A DNA stretch of 64,000 bases from Candidatus Poribacteria bacterium. Its GTDB lineage: Bacteria; Poribacteria; WGA-4E; WGA-3G. The stretch lies in the NCBI GenBank assembly GCA_003635315.1, contig PYJD01000026.1, forward strand, positions 1-64,000, given 5' to 3'. Below the pieces are notes generated by a model that worked only from the letters and a program-made list of their open reading frames with translations, searched no databases and was not told where the DNA came from. Shown here one piece after another: positions 35,772 through 36,938 of the stretch; the first letter of the stretch is position 1; each line of letters begins with the position of its first letter. The position numbers were made by a program, and so were the translations under genes.

Positions 35772-36938
35772 ATGCCTGAATTAAATATCAGAGAACTTTT
35801 CTATATAACACATATCAACAATCTTAGTTCCATTATGTCACTGGGAATTTATTCTCACGAGAAAATTGAAACTGATGATGTACATTCGACACCTATATAT
35901 GATACTGATATTGTTTCACGACGAAAAGAAAAAACAACCCCAGGTGGTAGGAATCTATGGTCTTATGCAAATCTTTATTTTCAACCGCGTAATGCAATGA
36001 TGTACCGTGTAGTACATGAAAAAGACCCTACCAATTTAGCAGTTGTTGGAATAAAGACTACAATATTGAATGAAAATGGCATATTTATCACAGATGGAAA
36101 TGCTGCACATGATTCAACACTATTTTATCCTCCAAATAAAGGGATGGATATACTTAGGAAACAATGGTCAATAATTCAAAATGATTGGTGGAATAGAGAT
36201 GATGGATCGAAACGGAAGATTATGGCAGAATGTCTAATTCCAAATCAGGTCAAGCCTGATTATATCCAAGCAGTCTATGTTGCAAAAAACTCAACGCGAG
36301 AAAAAGCTCAAAGTATATTAGGTGATTCAAATATTCCAATTAGTACACAACCAGATATGTTCTTCCAACCAAACAGTCGTACAAAAATTGGGGCTAATAT
36401 TTCACTAATTGATGGAGATATGTTCTTTTCAAATCTTCAGACTCTAACAATTAGTGTTAATCTACAAGGAGTCATGGGAAAAGGATTGGCTTCACGGGCG
36501 AAGTATCAATTTCCGGATGTCTATGTTGCATACCAAGATGCCTGTCGATCAAAAAGAATCACCGCTACAAGACCATTCCTATACAAACGGGAAAGTTCAT
36601 TGGATGATGAATTAGCTGATTTGGAAACACCCCTTGGTACATCTAATACTGTAAAATGGTTCCTTCTATTTGCAACTAAACGACATTGGAAAGACAACTC
36701 ACGGATGGAGGACATTGAAGGAGGACTTAAATGGGTTCGAGACAATTATCAAAAACAAGGAATTCAATCTCTTGCACTACCAGCACTCGGTTGTGGATTA
36801 GGTGGTTTGGATTGGAAGACAGTTGGTCCGTTGATGTGTAAATTTCTACATGGAATTGATATCTCTGTTGCCATCTACTTACCACAAGAATCCCAAATTG
36901 AAGATATATATAAAACAGAATCACACCTTCTCCCATAA
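35772..36938 (+). CDS. Fused DarT-like ADP-ribosyltransferase (about 35772-36370) and DarG-like macrodomain (about 36375-36935)
   Basis: DarT half: ELFYITHINNLSSIMSLGIYSH, LWSYANLYFQPRNAMMYRV, IMAECLIPNQVKPDYIQAVYV with Glu codon at 36228-36230. Macro half: ISLIDGDMFFSNLQTLTISVNLQGVMGKGLASRAKYQFPDVYVAYQDACR ... GIQSLALPALGCGLGGLDWKTVGPLM. Confidence 0.88.
   Translation: MPELNIRELFYITHINNLSSIMSLGIYSHEKIETDDVHSTPIYDTDIVSRRKEKTTPGGRNLWSYANLYFQPRNAMMYRVVHEKDPTNLAVVGIKTTILNENGIFITDGNAAHDSTLFYPPNKGMDILRKQWSIIQNDWWNRDDGSKRKIMAECLIPNQVKPDYIQAVYVAKNSTREKAQSILGDSNIPISTQPDMFFQPNSRTKIGANISLIDGDMFFSNLQTLTISVNLQGVMGKGLASRAKYQFPDVYVAYQDACRSKRITATRPFLYKRESSLDDELADLETPLGTSNTVKWFLLFATKRHWKDNSRMEDIEGGLKWVRDNYQKQGIQSLALPALGCGLGGLDWKTVGPLMCKFLHGIDISVAIYLPQESQIEDIYKTESHLLP

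What the first reader, a model, noticed from the sequence alone, without database searches (positions are those of the whole stretch)
35772..36938. Single-polypeptide DarT-DarG-like toxin-antitoxin inside a MoxR/VWA operon
The N-terminal half looks like DarT (ssDNA-thymidine ADP-ribosyltransferase): H in ITHINNL, YFQPRNAMMYRV, and the catalytic-type Glu in MAECLIP. The C-terminal half looks like the DarG macrodomain (GVMGKGLASRAKYQFPDVYVAYQDAC, LPALGCGLGGLDWKTV). DarTG normally is two genes; here toxin and reversing enzyme are in cis, without an extra DarG C-terminal domain. It lies between the VWA gene (ends 35571) and the DUF4175-like gene (37066), which normally sit together in such operons, so it appears to be an insertion. 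Modification and removal in one chain could act as a switchable DNA ADP-ribosylation device or phage defence module.
Basis: partly seen in the sequence, partly recalled or inferred. Interest (0 to 1): 0.85.

Follow-up and report, generated by a model that had tools for sequence, protein, structure and literature searches.

The report
Single-chain DarTG toxin–antitoxin, already known
This bacterial gene makes one protein that can probably both attach an ADP-ribose mark to DNA, which blocks replication, and take it off again; the same kind of fused protein is widespread and one was crystallised in 2021, so it is a sound new member of a known kind rather than a discovery.

Summary
Window 35772-36938 is one intact 388-aa ORF with an N-terminal DarT domain (Pfam 8e-47) and a C-terminal DarG-type macrodomain. 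It is not a sequencing artefact: 71 other aligned fused proteins exist, both halves are under purifying selection, and the catalytic residues are conserved (DarT Glu153 in 71/72, DarG Lys303 in 72/72). The architecture is not new. PDB 7omu, 'Thermosipho africanus DarTG' (2021), is one chain that matches end to end (50% identity; TM 0.91/0.94, 2.0 Å). Fused DarTGs occur in many phyla. The insertion claim is right: the gene fills a variable slot between the VWA and DUF4175-like genes; seven genomes of the genus carry it there, one has a decayed remnant, others have none. The slot elsewhere holds restriction- or nuclease-like genes, so it looks like a small defence-type hotspot rather than part of the MoxR/VWA machine. 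Most likely it is a compact reversible thymidine DNA ADP-ribosylation (DarTG2-type) toxin-antitoxin or phage-defence module. Not in the papers I could search: in a sister genus one slot holds a single fusion, a free DarT plus a fusion (one with a dead fused DarT), or a lone DarG derived from a fusion, recording repeated toxin duplication, swapping and loss.

The parts
35772..36938 (+). fused DarT-DarG gene (388 aa plus stop), ATG start
   Evidence: full-length match to PDB 7omu
35772..36371 (+). DarT ADP-ribosyltransferase domain (residues 1-200; H14, R51, Y69, M76, N110, E153)
   Evidence: Pfam PF14487 8e-47; residue mapping to Thermus DarT by profile alignment; conservation
36228..36230 (+). 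catalytic Glu153 codon (GAA in MAECLIP), equivalent of DarT2 E160
36372..36935 (+). DarG-type macrodomain (residues 201-388; N230, K303), no C-terminal DarT-binding domain
   Evidence: PADLOC DarG 2.6e-45, NCBIfam DarG profile positions 1-155 of 338
36678..36680 (+). catalytic Lys303 codon (AAA in FATKRHW), equivalent of TaqDarG K80
   Evidence: alignment to 5m31; invariant in 72/72
35696..35724 (+). promoter-like site (TTTACA-17-TATAAT, extended -10), weak evidence
   Evidence: 9 sites found against 8.2 expected by chance, though this is one of the two strongest
35763..35768 (+). Shine-Dalgarno GAGGTG
   Evidence: sequence
35572..36969 (.). segment with no counterpart in the closest relative (G011), whose flanks match at 86-88%: the inserted unit
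   Evidence: blastn of the junctions

Best explanation
It is a single-chain DarTG of the DarTG2 (macrodomain) kind. The N-terminal domain uses NAD+ to put ADP-ribose on thymidine bases in single-stranded DNA, which stalls replication. The C-terminal macrodomain hydrolyses the same adduct. With no DarG C-terminal DarT-binding domain, the toxin is held in check mainly by removal of the mark by the tethered macrodomain, perhaps helped by domain packing. It acts when DNA modification outruns removal, for example when phage replication exposes much single-stranded DNA or the macrodomain is inhibited. It sits as autonomous cargo in a variable, defence-type slot. Shown here: architecture, fold, catalytic residues, purifying selection, insertion and loss. 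Inferred from relatives: chemistry, thymidine as target, toxicity. Inferred only: trigger and phage-defence role.
For: Family matches. Full-length PDB match 7omu 'Thermosipho africanus DarTG in complex with ADP-ribose', 436 bits. AF2 model pLDDT 92, pTM 0.88, TM 0.91/0.94 and 2.0 Å over 388 columns to 7omu, and TMt 0.78-0.90 to Thermus DarT and to Taq/Mtb DarG macrodomains. E153 in 71/72, R51 68/72, Y69 69/72, M76 68/72, N230 and K303 72/72; their equivalents matter for catalysis in DarT/DarG (PMC5179494; PMC11543638). DarG removes thymine-linked but not DarT1's guanine-linked ADP-ribose (PMC11543638), so a DarG-type eraser predicts a thymidine writer. dN/dS medians 0.11 (DarT) and 0.07 (DarG) across 8 orthologues. 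Same slot in 7 species, remnant in G005, absent in G003, G007, G011, G018. HSDR_N-like, DpnI_C and T5orf172 genes in the same slot elsewhere.
Against: No activity was measured. The DarT and DarG domains score below the NCBIfam equivalog cut-offs (97 against 150 bits; 142 against 250, the latter at least partly because the C-terminal domain is missing). The position of DarT2's base-contacting H119 is Asn110 here, as in guanine-specific DarT1 (N104). Mtb DarT also has Asn there (7yk3), so base choice is not settled by sequence. Phage defence rests on context only.
Confidence: 0.85

Rival explanations
1. It is not a toxin system but a housekeeping writer-eraser that reversibly marks DNA, for example to pace replication (a regulatory role proposed for Mtb DarTG; from my own knowledge).
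For: Both domains are under purifying selection; writer and eraser are fixed at 1:1 in one chain, which does not allow the usual labile-antitoxin release; single copy in the genome.
Against: Patchy presence within one genus, decay in G005, and lone-eraser alleles fit a costly accessory gene, not a core regulator; restriction- or nuclease-like genes use the same slot.
Confidence: 0.15
2. The fused DarT modifies guanine (DarT1-like) or another substrate rather than thymidine.
For: Asn110 at the base-coordinating position, as in DarT1 N104.
Against: Best PDB and HMM matches are the DarT2 type; HYE-type Tyr69 is present, whereas DarT1 has Ser there; Mtb DarT also has Asn; DarG-type erasers do not act on DarT1's guanine adduct.
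Confidence: 0.1
3. Two separate ORFs joined by a sequencing or assembly error.
For: Two-gene DarTG exists in more distant relatives (L100, L101).
Against: Fused in 72 aligned proteins from many phyla and in a crystallised single chain.
Confidence: 0.005

Closest known systems
Thermosipho africanus DarTG (PDB 7omu, 2021)
   Same: Single chain DarT-macrodomain, same length and order, no DarG C-terminal domain, 50% identity end to end, TM 0.91/0.94
   Different: The crystallised chain has Ala at the catalytic Glu position, presumably a protective mutation; different host and genomic site
DarTG2 two-gene systems (Thermus aquaticus, EPEC, M. tuberculosis)
   Same: DarT2-type transferase fold with R51/Y71/M78/E160 equivalents; DarG macrodomain with N22/K80 equivalents
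   Different: Fused into one gene; lacks the DarG C-terminal DarT-binding domain; Asn instead of His119
DarTG1 (DarT1-NADAR)
   Same: ARTD-type DNA-base transferase paired with an eraser; Asn at the base-contact position
   Different: Eraser is a macrodomain, not NADAR; Tyr69 present where DarT1 has Ser; weaker fold match (8baq TMt 0.62)
TARG1 / macrodomain ADP-ribosyl hydrolases
   Same: Macrodomain with catalytic Lys (4j5r TMt 0.86)
   Different: TARG1 is free-standing with no attached transferase

Membership tests
Single-chain DarTG (7omu type) | DarT and DarG macrodomain in one chain, same order, full-length similarity | tested here: met
   436 bits over residues 6-386; TM 0.91/0.94, 2.0 Å
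DarT2 toxin | DarT/PARP-like fold | tested here: met
   PF14487 8e-47; Thermus DarT TMt 0.80
DarT2 toxin | Catalytic Glu (E160) plus R51, Y71, M78 equivalents | tested here: met
   E153, R51, Y69, M76 present and conserved
DarT2 toxin | His119 base-contacting residue | tested here: not met
   Asn110 in 68/72; also Asn in Mtb DarT 7yk3, so not a universal mark of the family
DarT2 toxin | NCBIfam NF048013 equivalog cut-off | tested here: not met
   97.1 against 150 bits
DarT2 toxin | NAD+-dependent thymidine ADP-ribosylation of ssDNA; toxicity | not testable with these tools
   needs biochemistry
DarG antitoxin | Macrodomain with K80 and N22 equivalents | tested here: met
   K303 and N230, 72/72
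DarG antitoxin | C-terminal DarT-binding domain | tested here: not met
   Only profile positions 1-155 of 338 matched; protein ends after the macrodomain
Two-gene DarTG toxin-antitoxin system | Toxin and antitoxin as separate genes | tested here: not met
   one uninterrupted ORF
DarTG1 | NADAR eraser | tested here: not met
   eraser is a DarG macrodomain
Anti-phage defence system | Protects against phage | not testable with these tools
   only slot context

The most novel reading that the evidence does not exclude
In the tandem loci (free DarT followed by a DarT-DarG fusion) the fusion serves as the antitoxin of the free DarT. The fused DarT domain is free to decay into a pseudo-enzyme (Glu to Gly in G056) that anchors the macrodomain to its target, taking over the job of the missing DarG C-terminal domain.
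Probability: 0.15. Interest if true: 0.5.

Novelty: new member of a known kind. Interest (0 to 1): 0.25.

Why it matters
The fusion itself is known. The family in Poribacteria does give a natural series at fixed chromosomal slots: no insertion, intact fusion, decayed fusion, lone eraser, and free toxin plus fusion with a dead fused toxin. That series allows a direct test of how a toxin-antitoxin pair is controlled when the two parts cannot be separated by antitoxin degradation, and of whether a macrodomain alone suffices as antidote. A natural single-chain writer-eraser is also a convenient starting point for DNA ADP-ribosylation tools.

Tried and rejected
(1) Frameshift or assembly artefact: rejected. 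(2) Asn110 as a sign of guanine specificity: weakened when Mtb DarT was seen to carry Asn too. (3) GTG start at 35766: rejected, it lies inside the Shine-Dalgarno. (4) Lone DarG in G078 (L099) and the partial match in G058: both run to a contig edge and are not counted as toxin loss. (5) A first AF2 model from 26 sequences had pLDDT 75 and placed the two domains poorly (TM 0.72 to 7omu); a 72-sequence alignment fixed this. (6) Fused DarTG on phages or plasmids: one unannotated phage record covers 95% at 29% identity; the best plasmid hits (Bacillus thuringiensis) are two-gene pairs. (7) Literature on fused DarTG: none found in the open library, and the 2021 and 2022 primary papers are not held; I recall that 7omu comes from the 2021 Nature paper on DarT but could not check it. 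(8) The whole-fusion query for the DarTs of the tandem loci mixes domains, so separate domain trees were built; both are quick trees with SH-aLRT support only. (9) A first dN/dS script failed on loci read in the wrong orientation and was rerun.

Full report
What is there. Window 35772-36938 (+) is one open frame of 388 codons. GAGGTG at 35763-35768 precedes the ATG at 35772; the GTG the ORF finder prefers lies inside it. Residues 1-200 are a DarT domain and residues 201-388 a DarG-type macrodomain. The protein ends where the macrodomain ends, so the DarG C-terminal domain, the DarT2-binding part (PMC11543638), is absent.

Active sites. A profile of the DarT domains aligns with Thermus sp. DarT (7omv) and M. 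tuberculosis DarT (7yk3). DarT2 R51, Y71, M78, H119 and E160 (roles of R51, Y71, H119 and E160 from PMC11543638 and PMC5179494; the M78 number is inferred from DarT1 M71 and my own knowledge) correspond to R51, Y69, M76, N110 and E153. TaqDarG N22 and K80 correspond to N230 and K303. Over 72 fused proteins E153 is kept in 71, K303 and N230 in all, R51 in 68, Y69 in 69 and M76 in 68. N110 (68/72) replaces the base-contacting His119; DarT1 (guanine) has Asn there, but so does Mtb DarT, so this does not decide the target base. The eraser does bear on it: DarG acts on thymine-linked and not on DarT1's guanine-linked ADP-ribose.

It is not new as an architecture. The best PDB match is 7omu, 'Thermosipho africanus DarTG in complex with ADP-ribose' (2021), a single chain aligned over residues 6-386 (436 bits; title). 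A 72-sequence AF2 model (pLDDT 92, pTM 0.88) superposes on it with TM 0.91/0.94 and rmsd 2.0 Å, domain arrangement included. A protein search gave 2482 relatives; nearly all of the 120 listed are ~389 aa with both Pfam domains. A genome scan found the fusion in Poribacteria, Calditrichota, Cyanobacteria (many Nostoc), Chloroflexota, Planctomycetota, Acidobacteriota, Bacteroidota, KSB1 and WOR-3. I found no open paper that discusses the fusion, but a deposited and named structure settles that it is known.

Where it sits. The genome is a Candidatus Poribacteria relative: the closest named loci are Poribacteria MAGs. The gene is single copy in its genome. In its genus the same slot between the VWA gene and the DUF4175-like gene holds the fusion in G000, G001, G004, G008, G009, G013 and G016. 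G005 keeps a decayed N-terminal piece (63% identity to residues 1-71, then stops). G003, G007 and G018 have the two genes about 70-90 bp apart. In the nearest relative, G011 (VWA gene 96% identical), the flanks match at 86-88% and everything from 35572 to 36969 is missing. The promoter-like TTGAAA-18-TATAAT upstream of the next gene (36977-37006) lies in sequence shared with G011, so the neighbour need not depend on the insert. The slot takes other cargo elsewhere: an HSDR_N-like gene (G009), a DpnI_C gene (G014), a T5orf172 gene (G004) and lectin/carboxypeptidase-regulatory genes (G001; similar-looking ORFs in G017). This reads as a small variable, partly defence-type slot, not as a functional part of the MoxR/VWA operon.

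Selection. Among eight orthologues median dN/dS is 0.11 for the DarT part and 0.07 for the DarG part (many dS values are near saturation, so these are rough). Both enzymes are maintained; the toxin part evolves faster.

Related states (beyond the finding). In a sister genus (g2) one chromosomal slot, between AAA and WYL-domain genes on one side and a convergent Hepar_II_III_N-like gene with STAS genes on the other, holds one of three things. Some genomes have a single fusion (L112; L108, L109 and L111 in similar surroundings). Some have a free DarT followed by a fusion (G056, G045, G031, G024; G037 is cut by the contig end upstream). Some have a lone DarG (G046, G057, G051, G022, G049). The lone DarGs fall within the single-fusion DarGs in the tree, keep a vestige of the fusion linker (P-x-SR-x-x-IG-x-N, with small variations) and the catalytic Lys, and their genomes have no other match: toxin-half loss. 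The upstream DarTs form one clade nested among fused DarTs, with an independent duplication in G064: they were probably copied out of a fusion. In G031 the fused DarT groups with the window's clade but its DarG with the tandem clade: the toxin half was swapped. In G056 the fused DarT has lost its catalytic Glu (MAGCLVP) while the free DarT upstream keeps it. An Acidobacteria locus (L159) also has a tandem DarT.

How it most likely works. Shown: fold, catalytic sites, fusion, selection, insertion and decay. By analogy with DarTG2: NAD+-dependent thymidine ADP-ribosylation of ssDNA, replication stall, and removal by the macrodomain. Jankevicius et al. found that the TaqDarG macrodomain alone suffices as antitoxin, so a fused DarTG without the C-terminal domain is plausible. 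Inferred: because writer and eraser cannot be separated by degradation of the antitoxin, activation must come from kinetics (much ssDNA), from inhibition of the eraser, or from cleavage of the chain. Phage defence is the most likely role from slot context but is untested.

Verdict. Correct and well-read observation, ordinary novelty: a new member of a known kind, with an interesting but not yet surprising evolutionary series around it.

Noticed in passing
L083, L084, L086, L087, L088, L089, L090, L091 (genomes G056, G070, G045, G031, G024, G034, G013, G002), L082 (G016): A free ~210-aa DarT gene sits directly upstream of a DarT-DarG fusion; G024 and G064 (L085) have two extra DarT copies, some degraded.
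   Followed up: yes
L083:4107-5288 (G056): The fused DarT has Glu to Gly at the catalytic position (MAGCLVP) while the free upstream DarT keeps MAECLVP: a possible pseudo-toxin within an antitoxin.
   Followed up: partly
L094-L098 (G046, G057, G051, G022, G049): Lone DarG genes derived from a fusion by loss of the toxin half, at the same slot where relatives have the fusion or the tandem.
   Followed up: yes
L087:3876-5036 (G031): Fused protein whose DarT half groups with the window's clade and whose DarG half groups with the tandem clade, suggesting recombination between domains.
   Followed up: partly
L066:2140-2352 (G005): Decayed remnant of the fusion (residues 1-71) in the VWA/DUF4175-like slot.
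   Followed up: yes
L078:3813-4799 (G009), L075:2122-2505 (G014), L070:3342-4880 (G004): The VWA/DUF4175-like slot carries HSDR_N-like, DpnI_C and T5orf172 genes in other species: a small hotspot for restriction- or nuclease-like cargo.
   Followed up: partly
window 32467-33363: About 900 bp with no sizeable ORF between the BatA-like and VWA genes; such gaps vary between species and may be another variable slot.
   Followed up: no
phage records, e.g. EU330206.1 phiEco32 34836-35393; LR881104.1 4257-4706: Phages carry DarG-like macrodomains (33-38% identity to the window's DarG), possible anti-DarT factors.
   Followed up: no
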